Source: Paeniglutamicibacter terrestris
Lineage (GTDB): Bacteria; Actinomycetota; Actinomycetes; Actinomycetales; Micrococcaceae
DNA: 64,000 bases
Assembly (NCBI RefSeq): GCF_012271785.1
Contig: NZ_JAAWVT010000005.1
Location: 62,001 to 126,000, forward strand
Direction of reading: 5' to 3'
The translations under genes were made by a program, and so were the position numbers. Below the pieces are notes generated by a model that saw only the letters and a list, made by a program, of their open reading frames with translations, was not told where the DNA came from and did no database searches. Positions 7,490-24,656 of the stretch are shown piece after piece (the first letter of the stretch is position 1; each line of letters starts with the position of its first letter).

Positions 7490-8617
7490 ATGATCAACCG
7501 ACGCCGCCCTCCGCTGGCCATCCTGCCGGTCGTCGTGGCGATCATTCAGCTTGTCGGAACGTATTTTGCGGCACTACGCTTCGGCGAGCCACTGACGTGG
7601 TTCGCCGTGCTTCTTCTGCTGGCGGGGCCAGCACTGTTGCTCCTACGACGCCGCGCTCCTGGACCCATGGTTGCCGGAATCGCGCTGGTGAGCTTCGGCT
7701 ACATCGCCGCTGGCTTCCCTTGGGGACCCTTCGCCTTGTGTCTTGCCATCGGGCTGATCGTCTCCGTTGTGGCAGGTGACCGGTGGTGGGCCTGGGGCAG
7801 TGCAGCCGCGGCGGCACTGGCGGGGTGGAGCGTGACGTTGCAGCAGGGTGAGGGCCGACGGTTCGTCTTTGTCCTGGTGTGGTTGGTTGTCATCTTGTTA
7901 GTGGGGGAGCTGGCCCGGAGTTTTAGGATCAGGGGCGAGGAATTCCGTCGGGCCGCCCGGGAAAGAGCCGCGCACCAGCGCGACGAGGAACGCTTGGTCT
8001 TGGCCCGCGACATTCATGATGTTGTGGCACATTCGCTCTCGATGATTCACGTCCAGGCCTCCGTCGCGTTGCACCTAGATAGGAAAGATGCGGACGCAGC
8101 CGGCATGCGCGAAGCCTTGGAAAACATCAAGATCGGATCCAAAGAGGCTCTGGCCGAAGTGCGGGAGGTTCTTGCCGTGTTGCGTCAGGACGCACCCCGC
8201 GTTCCCAGTCAACGCCTCGAACAGCTCGAAGATCTCATTACCAGAGTGCGTGGAGCAAATTTTTTGATCACCTACACACCGCCCATCCTGCCACCCCCGG
8301 ACTGGGTGGATGAACGCGTGGAGAACATCCTCTATCGGGTGGTTCAGGAGTCCCTCACCAATGTTGTACGCCATGCCCACGCCAACCATGTGGAGGTGAA
8401 TGTCGACATCGATGAGGGGCAAGCGAGCATTCGGGTCTCCGATGACGGAATAGGCATGGGGCCGGGACGAGAGGGCAACGGGATCGGTGGCATGCGCGAA
8501 CGTTTGGCGGCCAGAGGAGGATCATTGGTCATCACAAACGCGCGGCCAGCGGCGGCAGAAACCCCGGGCACACTCGTGTCGGTATGGCTTCCCGCCACCG
8601 AGGTACCGCATGCCTGA
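7490..8617 (+). CDS. Two-component sensor histidine kinase, NarL/LuxR-type (HisKA_3)
   Basis: 375 residues. Four to five membrane helices fill residues ~10-140 with little extracytoplasmic sequence, typical of intramembrane-sensing kinases. The dimerisation box LARDIHDVVAHSLSMIHVQA carries the phospho-accepting His176. The HATPase_c domain has the N box (VVRHAHANHVEVN), DDGIGMG and GNGIGGMRERLAARGG. The stop overlaps or abuts the response regulator gene, so the two form a pair. The signal is unknown; similar DesK/LiaS-like kinases sense envelope state, which would suit the nearby desaturase, but this link is inference. Confidence 0.92.
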   Translation: MINRRRPPLAILPVVVAIIQLVGTYFAALRFGEPLTWFAVLLLLAGPALLLLRRRAPGPMVAGIALVSFGYIAAGFPWGPFALCLAIGLIVSVVAGDRWWAWGSAAAAALAGWSVTLQQGEGRRFVFVLVWLVVILLVGELARSFRIRGEEFRRAARERAAHQRDEERLVLARDIHDVVAHSLSMIHVQASVALHLDRKDADAAGMREALENIKIGSKEALAEVREVLAVLRQDAPRVPSQRLEQLEDLITRVRGANFLITYTPPILPPPDWVDERVENILYRVVQESLTNVVRHAHANHVEVNVDIDEGQASIRVSDDGIGMGPGREGNGIGGMRERLAARGGSLVITNARPAAAETPGTLVSVWLPATEVPHA

Positions 8618-8654
8618 AACCACGCCAGCTTTCGACCCAAGGCCAAGGAAAAAC

Positions 8655-9356
8655 ATGATCGGCATTCTCATCGTTGATGACCAGTCACTCATCAGGGCGG
8701 GATTTTCCGCATTACTGAGTGCCGAAGAGGACATGGTGGTTCTTGGCCAAGCATCCAACGGGCTGCAGGGATTAGCCCAGGCCCGAGCACTAAAGCCGGA
8801 TGTTGTACTGCTGGATATTCGCATGCCGCAGGGCGATGGGATTACAGCGGCCGCGGCCATTACGGCTGAGCCGGGTCTTGAACATACGCGAGTCATTATG
8901 CTCACCACCTTTGAGCTAGAGGACTACATCCTTGATTCCATCCGCGCCGGAGCTTCGGGCTTTCTGGTTAAAGACACCGAGCCGGAGGAGCTGATTGCTG
9001 CCGTGCGCATCGTTGTCGCGGGGGATTCTTTGTTATCTCCCTCGGTGACTCGGAAGTTGCTCGCTCAGGTCGCTGCGACCAAACCGGCGCGGATGCCCAC
9101 GCATGCGGCAGCCTTTGACGTCCTGACCGAGCGCGAGCGCGAGGTGCTCTTGCTAATTGGAGCGGGCAAAACCAACGCCGAGATCGCCGAGCAGCTGTTC
9201 ATCACGCCGCTGACAGCAAAAACTCATGTTTCACGCATTATTGGAAAAATGGGGGTGCGTGACAGGACCGGGCTGGTGGTGATTGCTTACGAGAGCGGGC
9301 TCATCACACCCGGCGTGCAGCCCGGTGATACGGCGGCTGGGAAGCACGGGAACTAA
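8655..9356 (+). CDS. Response regulator, NarL/LuxR family
   Basis: 233 residues. The receiver domain has ILIVDDQSLIRAG, phospho-acceptor Asp54 (VVLLDIRMPQGDG), the Thr of IMLTTF and Lys of GFLVKDTEPEE. The C-terminal LuxR HTH (residues ~158-215) begins LTEREREVLLLIGAGKTNAE and includes LTAKTHVSRIIGKMGVRDR. The start at ATG 8655 has AAGGA 5 nt away. An alternative ATG at 8610 overlaps the kinase stop by 8 nt and has GAGG upstream, which would add 15 residues. Partner of the kinase just upstream. Confidence 0.92.
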   Translation: MIGILIVDDQSLIRAGFSALLSAEEDMVVLGQASNGLQGLAQARALKPDVVLLDIRMPQGDGITAAAAITAEPGLEHTRVIMLTTFELEDYILDSIRAGASGFLVKDTEPEELIAAVRIVVAGDSLLSPSVTRKLLAQVAATKPARMPTHAAAFDVLTEREREVLLLIGAGKTNAEIAEQLFITPLTAKTHVSRIIGKMGVRDRTGLVVIAYESGLITPGVQPGDTAAGKHGN

Positions 9357-11345: not shown

Positions 11346-11705
11346 CATGGTCAATATGTAAATGCGGTTTTGCGGCAATTTATGACGCCGAATTCATTGG
11401 TGGTCTATAGGCATGCGTATCCGGCCACCGCGATGCCTAGTTTTTTGTGAATGACCGAGGTGTCCCCTTGAAGAACAGGCTTTCATAAGGGGGGATCTGC
11501 TCAGCCGGGAGATCTTGAATGCAGTGCATTGTAGGGGTTCTAGTGGCCTTGTGTGCTAATAATGAAAAACTGAAGATGCATTGTTTTGTATTGGCACGCG
11601 TTTTGTTTGGTGAATTATGTAAGTCATACCTAAGCTATGTTGGTGGCCCACCCAAAACCTCCCGGGCCAACCGAATGTTTCACTCCAAAGAGAGTCCCCA
11701 CACTC
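11346..11705 (+). promoter_or_regulatory. Iron operon control region with DtxR/IdeR-like box
   Basis: About 360 nt without a credible gene. At 11615-11633 TTATGTAAGTCATACCTAA matches the DtxR/IdeR consensus TTAGGTTAGGCTAACCTAA at 14 of 19 positions. It lies 73-91 nt before the binding-protein start, where Fe(II)-loaded repressor would block transcription. The AT-rich sequence around 11560-11640 is the likely promoter zone; I cannot fix the -35/-10 pair. The rest, including a short open frame from 11519, shows nothing recognisable. Confidence 0.65.
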
Positions 11706-12740
11706 ATGACAATTCGCAAAAATATGCTGGCTGGCCTGGCCATCGTTGCCACGGCCACCCTCGGCTTGACTGCATGCTCGTCCGGCGCTCCAACCTCGGA
11801 CGCGTCGGACGATGCTGGGATCACCGTGTACAACGCCCAGCATGAAAGCCTGGCCCAGGAGTGGGTCGACGCCTTCACCGCTGAAACCGGCATCAAGGTC
11901 ACCATCCGCAATGGCTCGGACACCGAAATGTCCAACCAGATCATCCAAGAAGGTGCCGCCTCACCGGCGGACGTCTTCTTGACCGAAAATTCTCCCGCAA
12001 TGGCGCAGGTTGAGAATGCAGGTCTCTTCGCGGATGTGGACAAGGCAACCATCGCTCAGGTTCCGGCCGATTTCCGCCCCTCCACCGGCAAGTGGACGGG
12101 TATCGCTGCCCGGTCGACCGTCTTTGTTTATGACTCAAAGAAGATCAGCGCGGACCAGCTGCCGAAGTCCATGCTGGATCTGGCAAAGCCAGAGTGGAAG
12201 GGCAAATGGGCGGCCTCCCCGACCGGAGCTGACTTCCAGGCCATTGTTGCTGCATTGCTGGAGCTCAAGGGTGAAGCTGCCACGACCGAGTGGCTCGCCG
12301 GGATGAAGGAAAACTTCACCGCGTACAAGGGCAACTCCACTGCCATGAAAGCAGTGAACGCCGGCGAAATTGATGCCGCTCTGATCTACCACTACTACTA
12401 CTATGGCGACCAGGCCCAGACCGGGGAAAACTCGAAGAACGTCACCCCGTACTACTTCAAGAACCAGGACCCTGGAGCCTTCGTTTCGGTTTCCGGCGGA
12501 GGTGTACTTAGCTCTTCGAAGCACGCCGAACAGGCTCAAGAATTCCTGAAGTTCGTGACCGGCAAGGCCGGCCAGGAAATCCTGAAAACGGGAACTTCTT
12601 TTGAATACCCGGTTGGTTCCAAGGTGGCCTCCAACGAGAAGTTGGTACCACTGAAGGAACTTCAAGCACCGACGGTTGATGCCGCCAAGCTGAATTCGGC
12701 TAAGGTCACCGAGCTGATGAACACGGCAGGACTTCTGTAA
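11706..12740 (+). CDS. Fe(III) ABC transporter substrate-binding lipoprotein (FbpA/FutA-like)
   Basis: 344 residues. The signal peptide ends in lipobox LTAC, with Cys24 as lipid anchor. Mature protein starts [20 protein letters not shown], typical of ferric-binding proteins of the extracellular_binding_1 family. A tyrosine cluster IYHYYYYGD (Y228, Y230-Y233) sits where FbpA-type proteins coordinate Fe(III) with paired Tyr. It delivers iron to the permease encoded next. ATG 11706 is chosen because the signal peptide starts there, with AGAGAG upstream. An in-frame TTG at 11637 adds non-native sequence overlapping the control region. Confidence 0.92.
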
Positions 12741-12745
12741 CCAAT

Positions 12746-14338
12746 ATGAGCAAGACCAAGTTGGTTCCTAACGCTTTAAAGGAACCGAGTATGGCGGGCG
12801 GGGGAAAAATGCCCCGCCCGCCATTGGGCGTTTCGACGCTGGCACTTCTAGCGACCCTGATCGCTCTGTTCTCTCTTATCCCACTGGGCTACGTGGTCTA
12901 TATGACGGTCGTGACAGGATGGGACACTGTCGTAGAACTTGTCATCCGCCCGCGTGTTGGTGAGCTGTTGCTGAACACTGTTTTGCTGATACTGGTTACC
13001 GTGCCGATGTGCCTCGTGTTGGGAGTCGGTGGGGCATGGTTGGTCGAGCGCACGAACTTGAGAGGACACCGTTGGTGGGCGCTAGCGCTTGCTGCGCCGC
13101 TGGCGATCCCGGCGTTTGTTAATAGCTATGGATGGGCCTCCGCCGTTCCTTCGCTTGCAGGTTTAGGCGCCGGAACCCTCATCGCCACGCTGTCTTATTT
13201 CCCGCTGGTATACATCCCTGTTGCAGCCACGCTCGGACGCTTAGATCCGGCCATTGAACAATCAGCAGCCTCGCTCGGGCTCGGACCATGGACCGTATTC
13301 TTCCGCGTGATTCTTCCGCAGCTGCGCATCGCCATGGCTGGAGGCTCGTTGCTCGTGGCCTTGCACTTGCTATCGGAATATGGCGCCTTTGCGATGATCC
13401 GGTTCGACACCTTCACTACGGCCATCATGGTGCAGTTCCAATCGGCCTTCAGCGGTGCCGCCGGCAACATGCTGGCCAGCGTGCTGGTATTGATGTGCAT
13501 GGTGTTGCTACTCGCTGAGGCCAAAGTTCGCGGCAACGCACGGTATTCCCGAGTCGGGTTTGGGGCACAGGGACTTGCAACCCGACTGCGCCTGAGCTGG
13601 TATCAATTGCCGGCTCAGCTGGCCTTGTTGGCTCTCATTGTTTTGTCGGTAGGGGTTCCTCTGTATTCCGTAGCGCGGTGGACCATTGCCGGGGGAGCAG
13701 AGATCTGGGAACCGGACGAGTTCTTCCCGGCACTCTTCCAAAGCCTGGGTTACGGCTTGGGGGGTGCCTTGGTGACTTGTGTGGTGGCCTTCCCCATGGC
13801 CTTCATTGCTGTGCGTCACCCCAACTGGTTCAGCAGGCTCCTGGAGCTCTCCAACTACGTCACCAGTTCGATGCCGGGCATCGTCGTGGGTCTGGCCTTT
13901 GTTACCGTGGCGATCCGTCTGGTCCCCGGAATCTACCAAAGCTCCTACGTACTGCTTGCGGCCTACGTTCTACTCTTCCTCCCACGTGCGCTGGTGAATT
14001 TGCGGGCCGGGTTGTCCCAAGCGCCCATCGAACTTGAGGAAGCCGCTCGCTCACTGGGAAAGTCGCCCGCACGGGCCTTCTTCCGCGTCACTCTGCGACT
14101 GACCGCCCCCGCTGCGGCGGGTGGGGCGGCGCTTGTGTTCTTGGCCGTAGTTAATGAACTGACGGCGACCTTACTGTTGGCTCCCAACGGCACCCGCACC
14201 TTGGCCACAGCTTTTTGGGCTAAGAGTAGCGAAATCGATTATGCGGGGGCAGCTCCCTACGCCTTGTTGATGATCCTGATTTCCATCCCCATGACCTACT
14301 TGCTCTTCCAGCAGTCAAAGAAAGCGGCCGGACAGTGA
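12746..14338 (+). CDS. Fe(III) ABC transporter permease, two fused domains (FbpB-like)
   Basis: 530 residues, about 12 membrane helices in two BPD_transp_1 halves. Each half carries an EAA-type loop that docks on the ATPase: [20 protein letters not shown] (~170-190) and [20 protein letters not shown] (~432-450). A single chain with both halves is the normal FbpB/HitB form. A polar N-terminal ~25 residues precede the first helix. It starts 5 nt after the binding-protein stop, and its own stop overlaps the ATPase start by 4 nt (GTGA), showing tight coupling. Confidence 0.93.
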
Positions 14339-15447
14339 CCATCCCCGTACCGAAGGCCCACAAGATTCACGGACTCATGCCCTCCGTTAAATTCCTGCGC
14401 ACCAGCAATCTGGTCAAGAGCTTCGGTTCCAAGGACGTCCTTAAAGGTGTTGACCTCGCCCTGAGCGAGGGTGGAACCACCGCTATCGTCGGTCCCTCGG
14501 GTTCGGGCAAAACGACATTGCTGCGCTTGATCGCTGGATTCGAAAATCCCGATTCCGGGACCATCGAGCTAAATAACCGCATGGTGGCCGGAGATGCTTG
14601 GATTCCGGCACACAAACGGGAAATCGGTTACGTCGCTCAAGACGGGGCGCTATTCCCACACCTCAGTGTTGCTCAAAACGTTGCCTTCGGTCTGGGGCCG
14701 GCCTGGAAAATCGCTGGCCGAAAGGCCAATGCCCGCCGTGTGGCCGAATTATTGGACATGGTTTCCCTTGAATCGGACATGGGAGAGCGTCGTCCGCATG
14801 AGATTTCCGGTGGGCAGCAACAGCGCGTAGCTCTGGCTCGAGCCCTGGCTAGGAAGCCAAAATTGATGTTGCTGGATGAGCCGTTTTCTGCGTTGGATGC
14901 CGGGCTGCGCGTGGCTACACGCAAGGCGGTGGCAGATGTCCTGCACGCAGCGGAAATTACCACGATCCTGGTCACCCACGATCAGGGCGAGGCACTGTCC
15001 TTTGCTGACCAAGTCGCCGTCATGCGTGGTGGAACCCTGGCCCAGACTGGAACGCCCTTCGCCGTCTACACTCGGCCGGCAGACCTGGACACCGCGGAAT
15101 TCTTGGGGGACGCCGTCATGCTTGACGCTCAGCTCCAAGGCTCACTAGCCACCTGTTCGCTCGGCGGCATTCCGGTGCGTCACGCCATGATTCAGGGGGC
15201 CGTGCGATTGATGCTGCGTCCCGAGCAGATCCGCATCGTGGCCGATGGGAACATCAAGGGAACCGTTGTTGACACCGTATTCTTTGGTCCAGAAACCACC
15301 GTTCGTATCAGGCTAGCCCCGGTTCCCTCAATTGCCGGTGGTGGGGAAATTATTACCATCCGCCATTGGAATGCCGCTATGGCACGTCCCGGAATGGAGC
15401 TCAGGCTACGGGTCGTGGGCGAGGGCGTGGTCTTCCCGGCCGAGTAG
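14335..15447 (+). CDS. Fe(III) ABC transporter ATP-binding protein (FbpC-like)
   Basis: 370 residues. Walker [15 protein letters not shown]-loop [11 protein letters not shown], signature [15 protein letters not shown], Walker [13 protein letters not shown], and switch His in [10 protein letters not shown]. The C-terminal ~120 residues form a TOBE-like regulatory domain, as in FbpC/PotA. Starts with GTG at 14335 in a 4-nt overlap with the permease stop. A second in-frame ATG (14377) would fit the ABC domain more tightly and cannot be excluded. Powers iron import by the two upstream proteins. Confidence 0.93.
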
Positions 15448-15552: not shown

Positions 15553-16953
15553 CTACTTGACCGAGGTTGACTGAACCGCGGGGGCAACTCGACGCTTGTC
15601 GAAGATAGTTGCCCCGACCTCCTGCTCGGCCTGGTTACTGATCGAGAGATCAATTCCCGCGCGGTCACGCAGCAAGGAGACCGCGGTCAAAGAGATGAGC
15701 GTCATGAACAACAGATAGACGGATACCGCGGTGGTGGTTCCGGTGGCTTGGACCAGTGCTGTGGCGATCATCGGGGCAAACGCTCCGCCGATGATCGCAC
15801 CAAGAGCGTAGGAAATCGAGACGCCGGAGAAACGGACCGAAGCCGGGAACAGCTCGGAATACAGGGCCGCCTGCGGGCCGTAGGCCAAGCCTAGACCGAC
15901 GGCGAAGAGCGCGAAGGCCAGATACAACATGGGCAGTGAAGCGGTATTAACCAACCAGAACAGTGGGAAGACCACCAACGCCTGCGAAGTAAAACCGATC
16001 TGGTAGGTGCGCTTGCGACCAATTTTATCGGCCAGGTAGCCCGAGAGCAGGGTGAATAAGAACCACATAGTTGCGGCAAAGACCACGGCCACCAGGACGT
16101 CGGTCCGCTCGAACCCGATGGGACCCTCCGGGTTGGTGGTGTAGGCCTGCAGGAAGCCGCCGGTGGTCATGTAGCCCGCGGCATTATTACCGGCGAATAC
16201 CAAAGCAGCAATGATGACCAGTAGCCAGTGCTTGCGGAAGAGCTCAACGATCGGGACCTTGGTCTGCTGCTTCTTGGCGGCGATTTCCTCGAAGATCGGC
16301 GATTCTTCCACGGCGCGACGCACCATGTAGCCGACGGCGATCAGCACGATGCTCAGCAGGAACGGTACGCGCCAGCCCCAGGCCATGAACTCTTCGCCGG
16401 GGGAGATGACTCCCGTCATCAGTGCCATTACACCCGAAGCCAAAAGCATGCCCAGCGGGACTCCGAGCTGCGGGAAGGCGCCAGCACGTCCGCGACGGTC
16501 CTTCGGAGCATGCTCAACCGCCATAAGGACCGCGCCGCCCCATTCGCCGCCAGCGGAGATTCCCTGCAAGATGCGCAACAGCAGCAGCATGATCGGGGCG
16601 ATGACCCCGGCCGTGGCGTAGGTGGGCAAGACTCCAATGAGCGTGGTTGCCGCACCCATCATGATCAGCGTGATCACCAGCATGGCACGGCGGCCAATCT
16701 TGTCCCCGTAATGCCCGGCCAGGAATGCGCCAAGAGGCCGGAAGAGGAAGGAAATACCCACTGAAGCGAAGGCCAGCAAGAGACCAATCTGTGCGCCGGC
16801 GGGCTTAAAGAACAGCTCGGCGAAGATCAGGCCAGCGGCGGTGGCGTAAATGAAGAAGTCGTACCACTCAATGGTGGTGCCGATGATCGTGGCAAACGCC
16901 ACCCGGCGCGAGTTGGCTCGCTGGGCTGGTGTCTGGCTCTGGGCAATGCTCAT
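15553..16953 (-). CDS. MFS transporter, metabolite:H+ symporter (MHS) family
   Basis: 466 residues, 12 membrane helices. The start RRVAFATIIGTTIEWYDFFIY is characteristic of MHS members (ProP, shikimate, citrate, alpha-ketoglutarate carriers). The MFS loop motifs GHYGDKIGRR and LADKIGRKRTYQ follow helices 2 and 8. Imports a small organic acid, betaine or aromatic acid with protons; the exact substrate is unknown. GAGGAG lies 5 nt before the ATG. It is divergent from a LysR regulator and close to the P450 operon, suggesting that it brings in the P450 substrate (inference). Confidence 0.88.
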   Translation of the reverse strand: MSIAQSQTPAQRANSRRVAFATIIGTTIEWYDFFIYATAAGLIFAELFFKPAGAQIGLLLAFASVGISFLFRPLGAFLAGHYGDKIGRRAMLVITLIMMGAATTLIGVLPTYATAGVIAPIMLLLLRILQGISAGGEWGGAVLMAVEHAPKDRRGRAGAFPQLGVPLGMLLASGVMALMTGVISPGEEFMAWGWRVPFLLSIVLIAVGYMVRRAVEESPIFEEIAAKKQQTKVPIVELFRKHWLLVIIAALVFAGNNAAGYMTTGGFLQAYTTNPEGPIGFERTDVLVAVVFAATMWFLFTLLSGYLADKIGRKRTYQIGFTSQALVVFPLFWLVNTASLPMLYLAFALFAVGLGLAYGPQAALYSELFPASVRFSGVSISYALGAIIGGAFAPMIATALVQATGTTTAVSVYLLFMTLISLTAVSLLRDRAGIDLSISNQAEQEVGATIFDKRRVAPAVQSTSVK

Positions 16954-17087
16954 GGTGCTCCTCTTTGAGCGGACTGCTCGGACTGTAAGGACCTGCTCAC
17001 GTTAGCCAGATCACTAACCAGTGTCACAGACCACATAGATTGAGTAAACTTCAAATAGGTGTACAACATTTTTGATTGGACTGAAGA

Positions 17088-18005
17088 ATGGCACGATTCT
17101 CCCTGCGCCAACTTGAACTGCTGGCCGAACTCCCACGGCATTCAACCCTTGGGTCAGCGGCCGCGGAACTAAACATCTCCGAATCCGCACTGTCCCAAGC
17201 GATAACCTCCGTCGAAAGGATCGCCGGAGAACAGCTATGTGTGCGCCGCAAAGCGCACGGAGTACGGATGACCCCGGCGGGACAGTACTTCGCTGCCAAG
17301 GCGGCACGCATCGTGGCCGACGCCGACGAGCTGGGAGATTCCTTTCCCCGCTCAGATGGTTCGTTGCGAGGTCCGGTGTCGATGGGCTGCTTCGCGTCCT
17401 TCGCCAGCCACGTGGTGCCCTCGATTCTCGAAGGCTTTCGCGCCGTCCAGCCGGGGATTGATGTCAGCGTGAGTGTTGGCACTCACGATGATCTGCTTCC
17501 GGCCCTTGATAGTGGGGAACTGGACTTCGCCCTGGTCTACGATCTTTTGCTGCCCAGTGGTTTCACCAAACACACGCTCTATCAGACGAAGCTCGAGGTG
17601 GTGTTGCACCCCGAGCACCCGCTTGCTGCCCAAGACTCGATTACGCTGGCCGAACTGGAGAGCGAACCATTGGTGAACTATGAATCCGAACCCAGTACCG
17701 AAAACACCCGCAGACTTTTTGCCGAGGCCGAGCTGAATCCCACTATTGCCTATTCGCTGCCACAGGTAGTGCTGGTCAACGCCATGATTGGTCGTGGGTT
17801 GGGCTACGGGCTGCTCTATGCTCGGCCCAACAATCCACCGCACACCCTGGACGGACTGCCCGTGGCCATTAGGCAACTTACGCCACCGAACAGTCCCACC
17901 TCGGTGGTGGCGATCTGGCCACGGACCTCCACGCTCGGGCCGCGGGCAGCGGCGTTGCTGGAACACGGAAAATTGGCGATGGATGCTGCCTGGAGCCGCA
18001 ACTAA
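17088..18005 (+). CDS. LysR-family transcriptional regulator (transporter side)
   Basis: 305 residues. N-terminal winged HTH (residues 1-60, FSLRQLELLAELPRHSTLGS and LNISESALSQAITSVERIA) and a periplasmic-binding-like effector domain (from ~90, LRGPVSMGCFASFASHVVPS). It is divergent from the MHS transporter with 134 nt between starts, the standard LysR arrangement, so it probably controls the transporter and itself. It resembles the regulator at 21071 throughout: RRKAHGV after the HTH, the SMGC / SIGC strand, and GRGLGYGLLYARP. Its 3' end converges on the ferredoxin reductase gene with an 11-nt gap. Confidence 0.92.
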   Translation: MARFSLRQLELLAELPRHSTLGSAAAELNISESALSQAITSVERIAGEQLCVRRKAHGVRMTPAGQYFAAKAARIVADADELGDSFPRSDGSLRGPVSMGCFASFASHVVPSILEGFRAVQPGIDVSVSVGTHDDLLPALDSGELDFALVYDLLLPSGFTKHTLYQTKLEVVLHPEHPLAAQDSITLAELESEPLVNYESEPSTENTRRLFAEAELNPTIAYSLPQVVLVNAMIGRGLGYGLLYARPNNPPHTLDGLPVAIRQLTPPNSPTSVVAIWPRTSTLGPRAAALLEHGKLAMDAAWSRN

Positions 18006-18016
18006 ATACCCGCGAC

Positions 18017-19264
18017 TCACGAGGGGACCGGAATCAGGGTCTTGGCCAGAGCCTTAAGGCTAAATGAGGGGTGGGTCAAGGTGGCTGGATCCACGGAAAT
18101 GTTCTGTCCCACGAGCTTGCGGGCAGCGATGTGATCGGCGGGCGAGTTCACCGACTCCACGGCCGCCAACGCTCCGTTGCGCAGCAGCGCGATGGAGAAT
18201 TTGCCACTGCTGGGATCGCCTAGGATCACCGGTTCATCCGTCGGCTCCGAAATCCCGGCGATTTGCAGCCGTAGTGCCCCTTGGGTGCTCCAAAACCACG
18301 GGAGTTGAGCGTAACTGCTGTTCTCACCCATGATGCTGCGGGCCGCATGGCGTCCCTGATCGGTGGCGTTCTGCACCGATTCAAGCCGGGTCCTTGTACC
18401 GGTGTGCACATTGGGGAACGAGGCGCAGTCACCAACGGCCAACACTCCTGGAACCGAAGTACGAAGCGCTGCGTCCACCAAGACCCCGTTGTCCGTGGCC
18501 ACCCCGGCCGCCTGCGGCACCTCGGTGCGTGGAAGAACTCCCACGCCATAGAGGACAAGGTCCGCCGGATACCGACGGCCGGTGGTGGAGATGACCACCA
18601 GTCCCGCCTCATCACGTTCAATGGAGGCTACCCCCTCGTTCAAACGCAGATCGATTCCATCGGTACGGTGTCGCTCGGCGAACCACTGGGAGGCCGTCGC
18701 CGACAGGGCCCTGCCCATGGGGCGGGAAGCAAATTCCAGCACCGTTACCTCGAGCCCGCGGGCGTGGGCGGCGGCGGCAAACTCTAGGCCAATAAAGCCG
18801 GCCCCGATGACAACAACCCTTTGAGCCGTTGCGAGAGCGCGCTGCAGGTTCAGCGCATCACGCAGTGTACGCAGAGCATGGACACCTTCGAAGGTGGCGC
18901 CCGGGCAGGACAGTGGCCGGTTCGCCGCCCCGGTGGCGAAAACCAGATGGGTGTAGTTCAGTACGGTGCCGCCATCAAGGCTCACCTTACGTGCATCTGT
19001 GTCCACCGCGACGGCGCGGCCGGAGTGCAAAGTGATGTTCTTGGATTCAAAGAAGTCGGGCCCGCGCAGCGGCAGCGCGGTACCCTCGGCGGCAGCGCTC
19101 AAGTAGTCCTTGGACAGTGGAGGTCGCTGGTAGGGAACGGCAGATTCGTCATTAAGAACGGTGACGGCTCCGGGGTAGCCCTCGGCTCGCAGGGAATCGG
19201 CTACCTGGATTCCGGCCTGCCCGGCACCAATGATGACCGTGTGCTCAGCGCGTTTGGCGTCCAT
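18017..19264 (-). CDS. FAD-dependent ferredoxin reductase (P450 electron-transfer chain)
   Basis: 415 residues. FAD-binding TVIIGAGQAGIQVADSLRAE at the N-terminus, PYQRPPLSKDYL typical of putidaredoxin-reductase/rubredoxin-reductase proteins, NAD-binding VVVIGAGFIGLEFAAAAHARG in the middle, and the FAD motif LAVGDCASFPN. Transfers electrons from NAD(P)H to the [2Fe-2S] ferredoxin encoded 5 nt upstream. The ATG follows AGGTG; the tight spacing and order P450-ferredoxin-reductase point to one operon. The C-terminal domain matches the reductase_C fold. Confidence 0.94.
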   Translation of the reverse strand: MDAKRAEHTVIIGAGQAGIQVADSLRAEGYPGAVTVLNDESAVPYQRPPLSKDYLSAAAEGTALPLRGPDFFESKNITLHSGRAVAVDTDARKVSLDGGTVLNYTHLVFATGAANRPLSCPGATFEGVHALRTLRDALNLQRALATAQRVVVIGAGFIGLEFAAAAHARGLEVTVLEFASRPMGRALSATASQWFAERHRTDGIDLRLNEGVASIERDEAGLVVISTTGRRYPADLVLYGVGVLPRTEVPQAAGVATDNGVLVDAALRTSVPGVLAVGDCASFPNVHTGTRTRLESVQNATDQGRHAARSIMGENSSYAQLPWFWSTQGALRLQIAGISEPTDEPVILGDPSSGKFSIALLRNGALAAVESVNSPADHIAARKLVGQNISVDPATLTHPSFSLKALAKTLIPVPS

Positions 19265-19269
19265 AGTGA

Positions 19270-19593
19270 TTACACCTGATCCGCGGGGACATCAACAACG
19301 ATATTCATCAAAGCTGGGGACATCTTGATCTGGCAGCCCAGGCGAGATGAATCGGTGCGCTCGGCGGTGGTGCAATCGAGCATCTCGTCCTCGTCGTCGC
19401 TGAGCTCGGGTAGCTGATCAGTGAACTCCGGGCGAACATAGACATGACAGGTGGCGCACATGCCCTGGCCGCCGCATTCGCCGACAATTCCGTCCACGGA
19501 GTTGGTGACTGCTGCGCGCATGAGGGAGGTACCTTCGGCGACGGTGATTTCGGTGGTTGCACCGCTGGACTGGGCAAAGGTGATGGTGGGCAT
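19270..19593 (-). CDS. [2Fe-2S] ferredoxin, adrenodoxin/putidaredoxin type
   Basis: 107 residues. Cluster ligands Cys40, Cys46 and Cys49 (GECGGQGMCATCHVYV) and Cys87 (RLGCQIKM) follow the C-x5-C-x2-C...C spacing of vertebrate-type ferredoxins that feed class I P450s. The acidic helix LPELSDDEDEMLD is the usual docking surface for the partner proteins. ATG 19593 is chosen with AGGAG 11 nt upstream. Lies 69 nt after the P450 stop and 5 nt before the reductase start. Confidence 0.95.
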   Translation of the reverse strand: MPTITFAQSSGATTEITVAEGTSLMRAAVTNSVDGIVGECGGQGMCATCHVYVRPEFTDQLPELSDDEDEMLDCTTAERTDSSRLGCQIKMSPALMNIVVDVPADQV

Positions 19594-19662
19594 GAGGAAC
19601 AACGCTCCTGAAGTATGGGGAGAAATTCGAGTGGGAAGAATTGCTGGGCGTGGAGGGACGGA

Positions 19663-20955
19663 CTATCCCCAGGTCACGGGCATTTTGGTCAGACCGCGGA
19701 AGACCCAACCGGCGTCGATACTTTGACTGGAGGGGTCGAGGCGAAGGTCGGGGATTCGCTCAAAGAGCGCTGGCATGGCGATCTGGGCGACCTGTGCCCG
19801 GGCGATCCACGTGCCGGCGCAGAAGTGCACTCCGCCGCCAAAACCAAGATGTGGCTTCTTGGGACGGAAAATGTTGAACGATTCCGGATCCTCGAAGATC
19901 CTGGGATCCCGGTTCGCCGCACCCAACACCACGCCTAGCCGGGAGCCCTTGGGAAGATGCACTCCCTCGAGCACCACATCCGCGGTGGTTTCGCGGGGGT
20001 ACATGCCGATGGGTGCTACCCAGCGCACCGACTCTTCGAAGGCCACAGCATGCAGCTTGGGGTCGCTCTTGACGGCGGCCAGTTGCTCGGGGTGATTCAG
20101 TAGTGCCCAGACGGTGGTGGCCAGCACGTCGCGTGGCTCGTTCAGCCCACCGCCGATGGTCATCTTCAGGTTGGCTCGGATCGCCTCCAGGGGGATAGGT
20201 AAGGAAGCGAGGCCAGAGAGCAATGAATGGTCAGGGTTAGCAGCTAGGTAGGGGAGCATCTCGTCGATGGCCGCGTTGACCTCTTCCGATGCGGCGGCGG
20301 ACTTGGCCCAGACCTCGGGGTCATCGGCATAGTTTCCCGTTCCATCGATCATGCTCTGGCTCCAGCGCTGCAGGTCCTCTTGCGTTGCGTTGTGGAAACC
20401 GCAAATCAGTCGCAGGTTCTCCGCCGTGTATGGAGCCGCGTAGTCCCAGACGAAGTCGGCTCCTGGTCCCTTGGCGATCAGGGCGTCCAAGGATTTGGCG
20501 TGGTTGGACGCGAAGATCTGGTTCCAGTGCTTTTTGATGGTGCCAGGGCGCAGCGTCGAACCGTAGGAGTCGCGATCCACCTGATGCTTTGGATTGTCCT
20601 TGCGCAGCATCGAATGCCCCATGGCACGTTTCATCAGCGAATTGTTTTCATCGGCAGAGAACCGCGCTTCATCCTGCTCGATCTCGTGGCAGGCAGCGTA
20701 GGAGGTCACCATGTACCTATTAACCGCAGGAACCCAGTGCACGGGCGATTCGGCACGCATTCGCTGGTAGATGGGGAAAGGATCGTTATAAAGGTCAGGG
20801 ATGGTCACCCATCCGGCCACGGGTGCTTCGGCAAAGGTACCGGGTGACGCGGAAATAGGCGGGGCCGCTACCGGTTCAGCTGGTGGGTCCGTTTCCGCTG
20901 GGCCAGTGGCACCGGAGAAGGGGCAAACGCCGGTCGGGGCATTGGATGTACTCAT
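19663..20955 (-). CDS. Cytochrome P450 with atypical I-helix (Asn-Glu-Pro)
   Basis: 430 residues, soluble class I P450. Heme-binding loop HLGFGGGVHFCAG has thiolate Cys379; ExxR is E308-S-V-R311. The I-helix reads TIGGGLNEPRDVLAT. The acid-alcohol pair that normally drives O2 activation (Asp-Thr, as in GGLDT of P450cam) is replaced by Asn272-Glu273, followed by Pro274. A comparable Glu-Pro occurs in the guaiacol O-demethylase P450 GcoA, as I recall it. N-terminal ~45 residues are Pro/Ala-rich. ATG 20955 has AGGAG 10 nt upstream. First gene of the P450-ferredoxin-reductase operon, divergent from a LysR gene. Substrate unknown; an aromatic or ether compound is only a guess. Confidence 0.93.
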   Translation of the reverse strand: MSTSNAPTGVCPFSGATGPAETDPPAEPVAAPPISASPGTFAEAPVAGWVTIPDLYNDPFPIYQRMRAESPVHWVPAVNRYMVTSYAACHEIEQDEARFSADENNSLMKRAMGHSMLRKDNPKHQVDRDSYGSTLRPGTIKKHWNQIFASNHAKSLDALIAKGPGADFVWDYAAPYTAENLRLICGFHNATQEDLQRWSQSMIDGTGNYADDPEVWAKSAAASEEVNAAIDEMLPYLAANPDHSLLSGLASLPIPLEAIRANLKMTIGGGLNEPRDVLATTVWALLNHPEQLAAVKSDPKLHAVAFEESVRWVAPIGMYPRETTADVVLEGVHLPKGSRLGVVLGAANRDPRIFEDPESFNIFRPKKPHLGFGGGVHFCAGTWIARAQVAQIAMPALFERIPDLRLDPSSQSIDAGWVFRGLTKMPVTWG

Positions 20956-21034
20956 GGTGATCGGACTCCTGCGAGATATGGTCGGCTTCTTGACCTCTAG
21001 TGTGAGCTGTCGCATAACATCGGGTAAAGTACGA

Positions 21035-21067
21035 GTTTCAGTGAAGTATCCACGGTTTTAGTGAGGT
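21035..21067 (+). repeat. Direct repeat in LysR/P450 intergenic region
   Basis: GTTTCAGTGAAGT (21035-21047) and GTTTTAGTGAGGT (21055-21067) match at 11 of 13 positions with a 20-bp pitch, about two helical turns. The second copy covers the GAGG ribosome-binding site of the LysR gene. A candidate autoregulatory operator. Confidence 0.5.
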
Positions 21068-21070
21068 GTT

Positions 21071-21982
21071 ATGGCGCGCTATACGTTGCGGCAATTGGAG
21101 TGTTTTATTGCTGTGGGGGAGCACGGTTCCATCGCCGGCGCCGCGGAAGCCATGTTGCTCTCGCCCTCGGCCATCACCGGAGCACTGAATGAACTCGAAC
21201 GTGCCTTCAATTCTCAACTGACGATTCGTCGCAAAGCCCATGGGGTTCTCCTGACACCCTCGGGTCAGTATGTACTTTCTCAGGCACGGGGATTGTTACA
21301 TGCAGCAACGGACCTAGAAGTGATGGCCGGCGAAGCCGGGAACACCTTACGCGGCAAGCTATCCATCGGGTGCTACTCGTCCTTGGCGCCCACCATACTG
21401 ACCGAGCTCATGGCCGAGTACGGTAGCCGCCATCCGGAGGTGGAACTCGACTTCTTCGCCGGAACGCAGCAAGAGATCCACGAGAAATTGATGTCCGGGG
21501 AGCTGGATCTGGCCATTGCCTATGAATTTACTGTTCCACAGGGGTTGAACCGCACACGTTTACGCGAAGCGGTGCCGAGCGTCGTGCTGCCAGCTGACCA
21601 TCGACTAGCAGCCCAAGAACGGATTGCGCTCGCCGAGCTTGTTGGCGAGCCGATGATCCTGCTGGATGTGAATCCGAGCCGAGAGAACACCGAGATGATG
21701 TTCTCGGCAGCTGGTCTGACACCCGTGATTCGATACCGTACTACCGACTTTGAAGTGACCCGTTCGATGGTTGCTCGCGGCATGGGATACGCCATCTTAG
21801 TCCAGCGTCCAGCGTCCGACTTCTCCTACGAGGGCCTGCCACTTGCTGTCCGCCCGATCCATCCGGCCACCCGCAATGTGCCGATTTCCATGATTTGGCA
21901 GGCGAGCGTCAAGCTCTCAAAAAGTGCCGAAGCCATGCTTGATCTTGCCTTGGAGCTACATCGACCGTCTCCGAATCGCTAG
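21071..21982 (+). CDS. LysR-family transcriptional regulator (P450 side)
   Basis: 303 residues. HTH domain YTLRQLECFIAVGEHGSIAG and MLLSPSAITGALNELERAF, linker with RRKAHGVLLTPSGQ, effector domain from ~88 (LRGKLSIGCYSSLAPTILTE). Divergent from the P450 operon, starts 115 nt apart, so it most likely regulates it in response to the substrate. It and the regulator at 17088 are paralogues by eye. GAGG 4 nt before the ATG supports the start. Confidence 0.92.
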   Translation: MARYTLRQLECFIAVGEHGSIAGAAEAMLLSPSAITGALNELERAFNSQLTIRRKAHGVLLTPSGQYVLSQARGLLHAATDLEVMAGEAGNTLRGKLSIGCYSSLAPTILTELMAEYGSRHPEVELDFFAGTQQEIHEKLMSGELDLAIAYEFTVPQGLNRTRLREAVPSVVLPADHRLAAQERIALAELVGEPMILLDVNPSRENTEMMFSAAGLTPVIRYRTTDFEVTRSMVARGMGYAILVQRPASDFSYEGLPLAVRPIHPATRNVPISMIWQASVKLSKSAEAMLDLALELHRPSPNR

Positions 21983-22596: not shown

Positions 22597-23304
22597 TCAG
22601 TCGTTTTCGAACGTGACGTGTGCGATCAGCGCAGCCTGCACCCGAGAAGAAACACCGAGCTTGCTCATGACTCGCGACACGTGGGTCTTCACCGTGGTCT
22701 CACTGATTCCCAGGCTCCGTCCGATCGCATAATTGGTGCAACCCGTTCGAAGTTCCTTGAGGACATCCAATTCACGGCCGGTCAGTAGTTCGCGTGGATC
22801 GCAATCTGCAGTGCTCTGTGGAGCCGAGGTTTTTGCGTCGAGTGCGGCCCTGACAATGGTGGCAGTGACTTCCGGCGCCAGTACTTGGTCTCCCTCGAGA
22901 ACTGCATGCATGGCCGCGATAATATCGCGTGGGGCTGCACTCTTCAGCAGGAACCCATTAGCTCCCGCTGACAAAGCGCCGAATAGGTAGTCGTCGTGAT
23001 CGAAGGTCGTTAATACCAAGACCTTTGAGATTGCTTGGGCCGAAATAAGCCTTGTGGCCTCAATCCCATCCATGATGGGCATCCGCAGATCCATCAGGAT
23101 GATGTCGGGGCGCACGGCAGTTGCCAGGGTAACCGCATTTACTCCGTTGTTCGCTTCGCCAGCCACTTCGAACCCAGCCGCCGATTCCACTACCATACGC
23201 ATGCCTAAACGGATGGCTTCATGGTCATCCACTAGCAGGACTCTGATGGTTTGCTCCCGCACCCCTGGGGCATGAGTGCACTGCTCGTCTGTCTCATCGG
23301 TCAT
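22597..23304 (-). CDS. Response regulator, NarL/LuxR family
   Basis: 235 residues. A ~19-residue polar lead precedes the receiver domain (IRVLLVDDHEAIRLGM, phospho-acceptor Asp72 in IILMDLRMPIMDG, VLTTFDHDDYL, GFLLKSAAP). The LuxR HTH is LTGRELDVLKELRTGCTNYA and ETTVKTHVSRVMSKLGVSSR. ATG 23304 follows AAAGG at 7 nt and overlaps the kinase stop as ATGA, so the pair is translationally coupled. Effector of the kinase at 23301-24656. Confidence 0.93.
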   Translation of the reverse strand: MTDETDEQCTHAPGVREQTIRVLLVDDHEAIRLGMRMVVESAAGFEVAGEANNGVNAVTLATAVRPDIILMDLRMPIMDGIEATRLISAQAISKVLVLTTFDHDDYLFGALSAGANGFLLKSAAPRDIIAAMHAVLEGDQVLAPEVTATIVRAALDAKTSAPQSTADCDPRELLTGRELDVLKELRTGCTNYAIGRSLGISETTVKTHVSRVMSKLGVSSRVQAALIAHVTFEND

Positions 23305-24656
23305 TGTGGGGCCTTTCGACGTGCGAGAGGGAGGCCCTTGTTGTTTTCGGCCACTGAATCGGACGCATCCGTGGATAATCCGCCCTGTATCGGCAGTTGC
23401 ACGCAAAGAGTGAACCTGTTGTTTTCCGTTGCGGAGTCAAAGAATCCCCCCATTTCGGTGGCGCGTGCGCGCATGCTTCGCAGGCCGGTGCCCGTGCCCT
23501 GCATTGTCCGAGAACCATCGTGGGTGTCCTTTACCGTGTTGCTCGCCGTGAAGTGCACGGAGTCATCGAGGCGAGCCAACTCCATGGTCAGTTCCCCGTC
23601 GGGTGCATGTTTTGAAAAGTTGATGAGGACCTCGTTGATGCTCAGATACAGCGTTGCCTGAACTAGTGCATGGGCAATCACATCGCGTGGTGCAAGGTGA
23701 TTGTTATAGGTGATGTTGAGGCCGGTGCCGCTGTAGGTCTGGATAAGTGCTGGCACATCTGCAAGGGTTCCGGCCGGCTCCAGCGGAACTCCGTCATGGA
23801 GTAAACGAATCATCGTCCTGAGTTCTTCGATTCCCTGCACGCTCTGCGCGCGGATCTGTTCCATGGCTCGATCGTTGAGCGCCGTATTCTGCGGAGCATT
23901 TAATGCCGCGCCACTTTGCAGAGCGATGGCGGAGAGCCTGGCCGACAAAACATCATGAACTTCGCGGGCCATAACGCTTCGTTCCAGAGTCATCAACCGC
24001 TCGTGTTCGGCATCTTGGGCCGCCGCACGTGCTGCCGCTGCCTCGGTGACTGCCGCAGCGGTTTTGGCCTCGCTGGATGCGAGCTCACGTGCATGGCGAA
24101 CATTTGCTGCCCATTGAGCGGGCATGACCAGAGTGAGGGTTGCGGCCAAGCCAAGAGTCACACTGATACCCGCTGACCCGGTGACAAAGTACATCCCCAC
24201 GGCCAGCAACAGCGTCAGCACCAAGGCTCCATGTTCGGTGAGCTTTGACGTTCTTTGACCACCCAGTAAAACGAGCGTGAAAATGCACTCAAAAATCAGG
24301 AAGAAACCACCGGTGCTTCCGATCAGCAACAACACAATGCCAGTGAAAGCCATGACGGCAGCGCACGTGGGCGCATGCCATCTCCGAAGGATGATGGCGA
24401 GGCAACCAACGCCGAGTACTACTGGCCACCATCCGCCAAAGATACTGAATCCCCACAGGGCGTCGTTGCTCATCGACAGTGCATGGAGCAACCACGTAAT
24501 GCCAACGTAGACCAACGCCGGTCCGAGATCCTCGTAACGCATCAAGTGGAAAAGCCGTGGCCGGCCCTTCGCTGGGGTGTATGTATCGGCTGGCACCCCT
24601 TCATCGTCGTACGTCAGCGCGTATTTACCAAGGACTATTCTGGCCCTGTTGTTCAT
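23301..24656 (-). CDS. Two-component sensor histidine kinase (HisKA_3 type)
   Basis: 451 residues. A polar N-terminal ~45 residues (KYALTYDDEGVPADTYTPAK) precede about six membrane helices (residues ~45-180). An Ala-rich coiled coil (SSEAKTAAAVTEAAAARAAA) links to the H box MAREVHDVLSARLSAIAL with His234. The ATPase part has N-box-like INEVLINFSKHAPDGE and G-box GTGTGLRSMRARATEMGG. Divergent from a GAP-family membrane protein gene. The signal is unknown. No Shine-Dalgarno is visible before ATG 24656. Confidence 0.88.
   Translation of the reverse strand: MNNRARIVLGKYALTYDDEGVPADTYTPAKGRPRLFHLMRYEDLGPALVYVGITWLLHALSMSNDALWGFSIFGGWWPVVLGVGCLAIILRRWHAPTCAAVMAFTGIVLLLIGSTGGFFLIFECIFTLVLLGGQRTSKLTEHGALVLTLLLAVGMYFVTGSAGISVTLGLAATLTLVMPAQWAANVRHARELASSEAKTAAAVTEAAAARAAAQDAEHERLMTLERSVMAREVHDVLSARLSAIALQSGAALNAPQNTALNDRAMEQIRAQSVQGIEELRTMIRLLHDGVPLEPAGTLADVPALIQTYSGTGLNITYNNHLAPRDVIAHALVQATLYLSINEVLINFSKHAPDGELTMELARLDDSVHFTASNTVKDTHDGSRTMQGTGTGLRSMRARATEMGGFFDSATENNRFTLCVQLPIQGGLSTDASDSVAENNKGLPLARRKAPQ

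What the first reader, a model, noticed from the sequence alone, without database searches (positions are those of the whole stretch)
15553..21982. Three-component P450 module with acid-alcohol-less I-helix, transporter and twin LysR regulators
P450, adrenodoxin-type ferredoxin and FAD reductase form one operon divergent from a LysR gene. A second, related LysR gene sits divergent from an MHS transporter next door. The P450 I-helix has Asn272-Glu273-Pro274 in place of Asp-Thr. The layout suggests an uncharacterised uptake-and-oxidation pathway for one compound. As I recall, GcoA (aromatic O-demethylase) has a similar Glu-Pro, but its reductase is a single fused protein, unlike here.
Basis: partly seen in the sequence, partly recalled or inferred. 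Interest (0 to 1): 0.7.

Follow-up and report, generated by a model that had tools for sequence, protein, structure and literature searches.

The report
Aromatic-demethylating P450 module with paired importer
A soil actinobacterium carries a small, apparently jointly controlled gene set that probably imports a methoxylated aromatic acid and clips off its methyl groups with a cytochrome P450; the enzyme belongs to a known family (CYP1232), so the module itself is ordinary, but its relatives show how one P450 family swaps and fuses its electron-supply proteins.

Summary
In detail: P450, ferredoxin and FAD reductase form an operon divergent from LysR2, and an MHS-type transporter is divergent from LysR1. 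The I-helix has Asn272-Glu273-Pro274. The P450 is not an orphan: its nearest solved structure is CYP1232A24 of Arthrobacter (6g71, 53.8% identity), with the same GGGLNEPRD helix; GcoA is remote (29%). Putative substrate-contact segments are 76% identical to CYP1232A24, against 47% elsewhere. CYP1232A24 has a role in papaverine metabolism (paper title seen; its O-demethylation of methoxyphenylacetates is recalled). In 8 of 80 related loci the P450 lies near homoprotocatechuate-cleavage (hpa) genes, in 1 of 80 near pcaH. Best reading: a LysR-controlled importer plus class I O-demethylase for a methoxylated aromatic acid, most likely an arylacetate; the substrate is unproven. New member of a known kind. 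In passing: in 33 of 37 loci of a sister clade the P450 is one chain with an FprA-type FAD reductase and a cindoxin-like flavodoxin, an architecture I found in no paper listing searched.

The parts
15553..16953 (-). MHS-type MFS transporter (predicted proton-coupled aromatic-acid importer)
   Evidence: Pfam MFS_1/Sugar_tr; best NCBIfam TIGR00883, below its cut-off; homologue of at least 50% identity within 5.5 kb of the P450 in 32 of 43 three-gene relatives
17016..17060 (-). transporter promoter with shared element TGAAG-TTTACT (-35-like 17048-17043) and GACACT (-10-like 17025-17020)
   Evidence: found by a matrix trained only on P450 promoters, first rank in the window outside the P450 promoter; weak with the stricter profile R2 (E=2.7); alignment; -35/-10 roles inferred
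17088..18005 (+). LysR1 regulator
   Evidence: Pfam HTH_1 + LysR_substrate; 34% identical to LysR2
18017..19264 (-). FAD-dependent ferredoxin reductase (putidaredoxin-reductase type)
   Evidence: Pyr_redox_2 + Reductase_C; 3fg2 E=1.2e-99, putidaredoxin reductase 1q1r E=3.5e-78
19270..19593 (-). [2Fe-2S] ferredoxin, putidaredoxin type; Cys-X5-Cys-X2-Cys-X37-Cys read from the translation
   Evidence: putidaredoxin 1gpx E=2.7e-30; translation; the ORF as called runs to 19602
19663..20955 (-). cytochrome P450 of the CYP1232 family; I-helix GGGLNEPRD, haem-ligand motif FGGGVHFCAG
   Evidence: 6g71 CYP1232A24 E=2.5e-144, 53.8% over 390 aa, Foldseek rank 1, tree
20997..21038 (-). P450-operon promoter element AAACTCGTAC-TTTACC-N18-CACACT in the LysR2/P450 gap
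   Evidence: conserved across clade A relatives; R2 match 37.3 bits, E=8.5e-9 in the genome search; -35/-10 roles inferred
21071..21982 (+). LysR2 regulator, divergent from the P450 operon
   Evidence: Pfam; divergent LysR in 42 of 43 three-gene relatives

Best explanation
The six genes form one substrate-induced catabolic module. An MHS-type importer (under LysR1) brings in a methoxylated aromatic acid. A CYP1232-family P450 (under LysR2) removes its O-methyl group(s): NADH, FAD reductase, [2Fe-2S] ferredoxin and haem pass the electrons, and the methyl carbon is hydroxylated and lost as formaldehyde. The resulting phenol or catechol goes to ring cleavage encoded elsewhere, most likely the homoprotocatechuate (3,4-dihydroxyphenylacetate) pathway, for which this genome has genes on another contig. 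Both promoters carry a similar TTTAC-centred element (TGAA(C/G)TTTAC in most relatives; CGTACTTTAC and TGAAGTTTAC in the window), so the two related LysR proteins probably answer to the same or a related inducer. Shown by sequence: gene identities, family, class I partner set, conserved linkage, similar promoter element, hpa genes near some relatives and elsewhere in this genome. Inferred: O-demethylation, arylacetate substrate, transport direction, activation by the LysR proteins, NADH as co-substrate. The Glu-Pro I-helix is read as the proton-delivery variant of this clan in place of acid-alcohol; that is inference.
For: Family: 53.8% identity to CYP1232A24 over 390 aa, Foldseek rank 1 with TMt 0.92 and the PDB title naming CYP1232A24, joint clade apart from paralogues. 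Active site: segments that I placed as SRS1-6 are 69/91 identical to CYP1232A24 against 137/293 elsewhere; the Micrococcaceae paralogue L114, of similar overall identity (50%), shows only 50/91. Pathway: at least two of HpaD/HpaE/HpaG homologues lie in the same fetched locus in 8 of 80 relatives: two three-gene loci and six fused ones, in Agrococcus, Microbacterium, Saccharopolyspora and a Nocardiopsaceae bacterium; pcaH in 1 of 80. The own genome has HpaD and HpaE over their cut-offs and an HpaG-like protein (FAH family NF009399). Co-regulation: matrix from 39 P450 promoters, transporter promoter at rank 1 in 16 of 17 loci; 15 of 17 when the 16 tested relatives are left out of training; column-shuffled matrices give at most 6, mean 1.4. 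Linkage: transporter near the P450 in 32 of 43, in 16 with no LysR gene between.
Against: No activity data; the CYP1232A24 reactions are recalled, and only the paper's title and one sentence about its redox partners were seen. Two more distant relatives in other settings (L088, L089; 49-50% identity) also keep 61/91 and 62/91 of the substrate segments, so that conservation is not special to CYP1232A24. In this genome the hpa cluster is on another contig and holds no comparable copy of the promoter element. P450 presence does not track HpaD among 149 family genomes (35 of 40 carriers, 99 of 109 others; p=0.55) but does track PcaH (38 of 40 against 56 of 109; p=2e-7), although within genera the PcaH link falls to p=0.057. 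In 72 of 80 relatives no hpa pair was found in the fetched stretch (10 of the 80 are shorter than 15 kb). What I call HpaG and HpaI score under the curated HpaG and HpaI cut-offs. A stricter profile of P450 promoters alone finds only the P450 promoter in the genome at E up to 10 (150 of 812 candidates scored), and in the window gives the transporter promoter second place with E=2.7.
Confidence: 0.6

Rival explanations
1. The P450 O-demethylates a methoxybenzoate (vanillate, isovanillate, veratrate or p-anisate) and the product enters the protocatechuate pathway instead of the homoprotocatechuate pathway.
For: PcaH is present in 38 of 40 carriers against 56 of 109 others. The own genome has PcaH.
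Against: Stratified by genus the link is weak (p=0.057). PcaH is in 1 of 80 neighbourhoods, hpa genes in 8 of 80. Substrate segments match CYP1232A24, recalled as a methoxyphenylacetate demethylase.
Confidence: 0.22
2. The P450 hydroxylates a C-H bond of a non-methoxylated compound (terpenoid, steroid, alkaloid), as the reader's list of test substrates allows.
For: The camphor-type P450/ferredoxin/reductase set is typical of such catabolic P450s; 54% identity does not fix a substrate.
Against: The Foldseek matches at ranks 1-21 are all CYP1232A24, GcoA or SyoA, by title or recollection aromatic O-demethylases. Substrate segments are conserved with CYP1232A24. I did not search the neighbourhoods for terpene or steroid genes.
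Confidence: 0.1
3. A GcoA-like guaiacol O-demethylase (CYP255A type).
For: Glu-Pro I-helix in both; same overall fold.
Against: 28-30% identity to GcoA and SyoA; Asn- instead of Gln-Glu-Pro; substrate-segment identity to SyoA only 28/90; separate ferredoxin and reductase genes.
Confidence: 0.03
4. The transporter and LysR1 are a separate unit that merely lies next door.
For: Separate promoter and own regulator; 11 of 43 three-gene relatives lack it within 5.5 kb, 3 of these on short or early-ending contigs (L009, L029, L047); the stricter promoter profile does not call the transporter promoter.
Against: Linkage in 32 of 43, in 16 directly downstream with no LysR gene between; shared promoter element by the positional matrix with shuffle control.
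Confidence: 0.07

Closest known systems
CYP1232A24 (PDB 6g71), Arthrobacter sp., papaverine pathway
   Same: Family by identity (53.8%), GGGLNEPRD I-helix, substrate segments (69/91), fold.
   Different: Different clade (A against B); a review says that its authors proposed a cluster with flavodoxin and flavodoxin reductase as partners (passage in PMC9687028), whereas here it is ferredoxin plus FAD reductase; identity just under the usual 55% subfamily line.
GcoA / AgcA / SyoA (CYP255A; grouping seen in a passage of PMC13101465)
   Same: Aromatic O-demethylase P450s; GcoA and SyoA have Glu-Pro in the I-helix.
   Different: 28-30% identity; Gln-Glu-Pro; one reductase partner protein (recalled for GcoB); other substrates.
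P450cam system (putidaredoxin reductase / putidaredoxin / P450cam)
   Same: Class I layout: FAD reductase, putidaredoxin-type [2Fe-2S] ferredoxin, P450.
   Different: Different P450 family; substrate class and regulators differ (recalled).
P450cin with cindoxin
   Same: Relevant only to the sister clade, whose C-terminal domain matches cindoxin best (for L043).
   Different: The window's module uses ferredoxin, not flavodoxin.

Membership tests
CYP1232 (P450 family) | at least 40% amino-acid identity to a member (nomenclature rule, recalled) | tested here: met
   53.8% over 390 aa to CYP1232A24
CYP1232 (P450 family) | groups with a named member in a tree, paralogues outside | tested here: met
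   98/96 support for clades A+B (102 rows) with CYP1232A24 in B; nine paralogue rows form a sister clade
CYP1232A (subfamily) | at least 55% identity (rule of thumb, recalled) | tested here: inconclusive
   53.8%; some other clade A members reach 55-57% to CYP1232A24 in the same call
CYP1232 (P450 family) | O-demethylation of methoxylated phenylacetates (recalled from the 2019 paper) | not testable with these tools
   needs enzyme assay
CYP255A (GcoA/AgcA/SyoA) | at least 40% identity to GcoA or SyoA | tested here: not met
   28-30%
CYP255A (GcoA/AgcA/SyoA) | single reductase partner protein | tested here: not met
   separate ferredoxin and FAD reductase genes
Class I bacterial P450 system | separate [2Fe-2S] ferredoxin with four Cys ligands and FAD reductase encoded with the P450 | tested here: met
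   spacing of Cys read from the translation
MHS family (TIGR00883) | score over the curated cut-off | tested here: inconclusive
   392.1 against 443.45 bits, still the best family hit
LysR-type regulators | HTH_1 and LysR_substrate domains | tested here: met
   both proteins

The most novel reading that the evidence does not exclude
Within one aromatic O-demethylase family the electron-supply chain has been replaced outright: from the class I ferredoxin system kept in the window, through separate flavodoxin partners (CYP1232A24, as a review reports), to a natural single chain P450 - adrenodoxin-reductase/FprA-type FAD domain - cindoxin-like flavodoxin in many Actinomycetota of the order that holds the window's family. 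That would be an undescribed class of self-sufficient P450 with the flavin order reversed relative to P450 BM3 (order in BM3 recalled). The architecture is shown by sequence (in-frame in 33 of 37 loci, a 34th cut by its contig end; domain matches for L043); activity, and being undescribed, are not.
Probability: 0.5. Interest if true: 0.62.

Novelty: new member of a known kind. Interest (0 to 1): 0.36.

Why it matters
It turns an apparently odd P450 into a testable catabolic module: a defined family, a short substrate list, a matching importer and a recognisable promoter element. Methoxylated aromatic acids are common lignin and alkaloid breakdown products (general knowledge), and a co-regulated importer plus O-demethylase is useful for their conversion. 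The wider family offers a natural series in which related P450s are paired with different electron-supply layouts, so the cost and benefit of fusing them can be compared directly.

Tried and rejected
Co-occurrence as a guide to the lower pathway: HpaD is in 134 of 149 family genomes, so it cannot discriminate; homogentisate dioxygenase is in 0 of 149; the PcaH link is mostly genus structure. In one search two genomes with only sub-50% P450 matches (G051, G087) counted as non-carriers and one with a broken fragment (G098) as a carrier. A stricter profile of P450 promoters alone (R2) does not find the transporter promoter genome-wide (150 of 812 candidates scored); the positional matrix with column-shuffle controls was the more sensitive test, and both results are reported. 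A pooled profile (R1), trained on both promoters and so circular for them, finds no third site in the genome at E up to 10 (150 of 402 candidates scored). The 3D model (residues 1-58 of low confidence) added little beyond confirming the fold and an unbroken I-helix 276-307. My first ORF clustering used longest ORFs and so picked some antisense frames in GC-rich genomes; counts in this report come from the tblastn maps, save where one search is named. The rough chance estimate for hpa linkage printed used assumed numbers and is not relied on.

Literature, all in the held open library: 'CYP1232' and 'CYP1232A24' are in no paper; the 2019 CYP1232 paper is not held. Searches on papaverine, Arthrobacter and homovanillic acid and on GcoA/SyoA were read as listings. 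Searches for a P450-FAD-flavodoxin natural fusion listed nothing recognisably of that kind; only listings with the start of abstracts were read, apart from passages of PMC9687028, PMC13101465 and PMC9477822 (Gulosibacter; its passages describe separate P450 and FprA genes, no such fusion) and a term search without hits in PMC12857756 (only its first 300,000 characters are held).
Full report
What is there. The region holds six genes in two divergent pairs. On the minus strand P450 (19663-20955), ferredoxin (19270-19593) and FAD reductase (18017-19264) follow each other and face LysR2 (21071-21982, plus strand). An MHS-type transporter (15553-16953, minus) faces LysR1 (17088-18005, plus). Domain scans agree. 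The own genome has 4.34 Mb in 31 contigs; a search with the P450 finds itself and two remote P450s at 28% and 24% identity.

Family of the P450. The closest solved chain is 6g71 (E=2.5e-144; next best 1.4e-52), titled 'Structure of CYP1232A24 from Arthrobacter sp.' in the fold search, where it ranks first with 53% identity; ranks 2-21 are GcoA and SyoA at 28-30%. A direct comparison gives 53.8% over 390 residues. CYP1232A24 carries the same GGGLNEPRD helix, while GcoA, SyoA and 9ia1 read Gln-Glu-Pro. Asn-Glu-Pro is invariant in the 25 sequences, window included, aligned; one further paralogue, L115, has Ser-Glu-Pro. So the acid-alcohol-less helix is a trait of the family. [quoted passage not shown] That it reports O-demethylation of 3,4-dimethoxyphenylacetate and homovanillate is recalled.

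Tree. With 117 rows the window lies in clade A (47 rows, 96/88); the related loci of this clade have a ferredoxin gene behind the P450 in every case and the reductase in all but two (L009, cut by its contig end, and L048). CYP1232A24 lies at the base (100/99) of a 54-row group; its other 53 rows all show an FprA-type reductase behind the P450. A Gordonia three-gene locus (L072) is basal to that group, and nine Micrococcaceae or Rhodococcus paralogue rows form a separate clade (100/100). Since 13 of 14 outgroup loci and the Gordonia locus have a ferredoxin gene, the class I set kept in the window is probably ancestral (inference).

Substrate. Segments that I placed as substrate recognition sites 1-6, from the model's secondary structure and general P450 topology, are 69/91 identical to CYP1232A24 against 137/293 for the rest; the paralogue L114, of similar overall identity to the window, has 50/91 against 141/293. 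Two other relatives, L088 (Agrobacterium) and L089 (Rhodococcus), keep 61/91 and 62/91 at 43-44% for the rest, so the contrast is one of degree. At least two of HpaD, HpaE and HpaG homologues lie in the same fetched locus in 8 of 80 relatives (L035, L039, L046, L054, L057, L058, L065, L066). Of the proteins checked, HpaD passes its family cut-off in L057 and L035 and HpaE in L057 and L054; the HpaG-like and HpaI-like proteins score under the HpaG and HpaI cut-offs. PcaH is in 1 of 80. The own genome has HpaD, HpaE and the HpaG-like protein on C12, with a transporter 50% identical to the window's nearby. Against this: carriage of the P450 is not linked to HpaD in 149 family genomes (35/40 against 99/109), while PcaH is (38/40 against 56/109, p=2e-7), falling to p=0.057 when labels are shuffled within genera. 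I therefore favour a methoxylated arylacetate without excluding benzoates.

Linkage and co-regulation. Of 80 related loci, 43 are three-gene and 37 fused. Three-gene: ferredoxin 43/43, reductase 41/43, divergent LysR 42/43, transporter within 5.5 kb 32/43 (16 directly downstream with no LysR gene between), second LysR downstream 16/43. Fused: divergent LysR 33/37, transporter 15/37. The P450/LysR2 gap holds a conserved block, TTTAC(C/T)-N(14-20)-(C/G)ACACT, in 32 of 42 three-gene and 0 of 33 fused loci. A 27-base matrix built from 39 P450-side sites, with no transporter-side site and without the window, was scanned over whole loci, both strands. The transporter/LysR1 gap holds the best site outside the P450 promoter in 16 of 17 loci (window included; L005 is second); 16 of 17 when nine irregular training sites are dropped; 15 of 17 when all tested relatives are left out of training; 100 column-shuffled matrices reach at most 6 (mean 1.4). 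The loci are related, so these are not 17 independent cases, but they span Paeniglutamicibacter, Arthrobacter and Sinomonas. A 45-base profile of P450 promoters alone is stricter: it finds only the P450 promoter genome-wide at E up to 10 and puts the transporter promoter second in the window with E=2.7. I read this as a shared but diverged operator/promoter, in line with two related regulators (34% identity).

Mechanism. Import, O-demethylation with electrons via FAD and [2Fe-2S], and passage of the (di)phenol to ring cleavage follow from the protein families. NADH as donor, transport direction and LysR activation are inferred. The I-helix with Glu-Pro is unbroken in the model (276-307).

Relatives. 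In 33 of 37 fused loci one open frame runs from the P450 through the reductase to the flavodoxin; a 34th (L052) is open to its contig end, before the flavodoxin; L056, L067 and L083 show breaks. For L043 the middle domain matches adrenodoxin reductase (1cjc, E=4e-43) and FprA, and the last domain matches cindoxin best (4oxx, E=1.7e-19). Searches of the held library for such a natural fusion listed nothing recognisably of that kind.

Verdict. Ordinary as a module, useful as a prediction, with the most novel part in the relatives.

Noticed in passing
L043:9998-13039 and 32 further related loci: The sister clade's P450 is fused in one chain with an FprA/adrenodoxin-reductase-type FAD domain and a cindoxin-like flavodoxin (domain matches made for L043).
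   Followed up: partly
L045:9387-10025 and similar genes in other fused loci: A protein with an HtaA (haem-transport-associated) domain (Pfam shown for L045) has homologues in 25 of 37 fused loci, in the loci viewed next to the P450 or LysR gene; a possible haem-handling partner.
   Followed up: no
L127 (G000:C1:663001-681000): A third LysR gene (35% to LysR2) beside FAD-binding, luciferase-like, MFS, HpaB-type hydroxylase, MmgE/PrpD and flavin-reductase genes: perhaps another aromatic module.
   Followed up: partly
L039:8943-21032: P450, ferredoxin, reductase, then HpaG, HpaE and HpaD homologues all on one strand in a Nocardiopsaceae genome, as if one transcription unit.
   Followed up: no
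L056, L067, L083: The fused gene is broken by stops or frame changes in these three loci; assembly error or decay.
   Followed up: no
window 11637-15447: ABC importer genes (binding protein, 530-aa permease, ATPase) just before the transporter gene; similar genes lie in a few relatives' loci (clusters c27, c26, c10).
   Followed up: no
window 22597-24656 and 7490-9356: Two histidine kinase/LuxR-type response regulator pairs, one on either side of the module.
   Followed up: no
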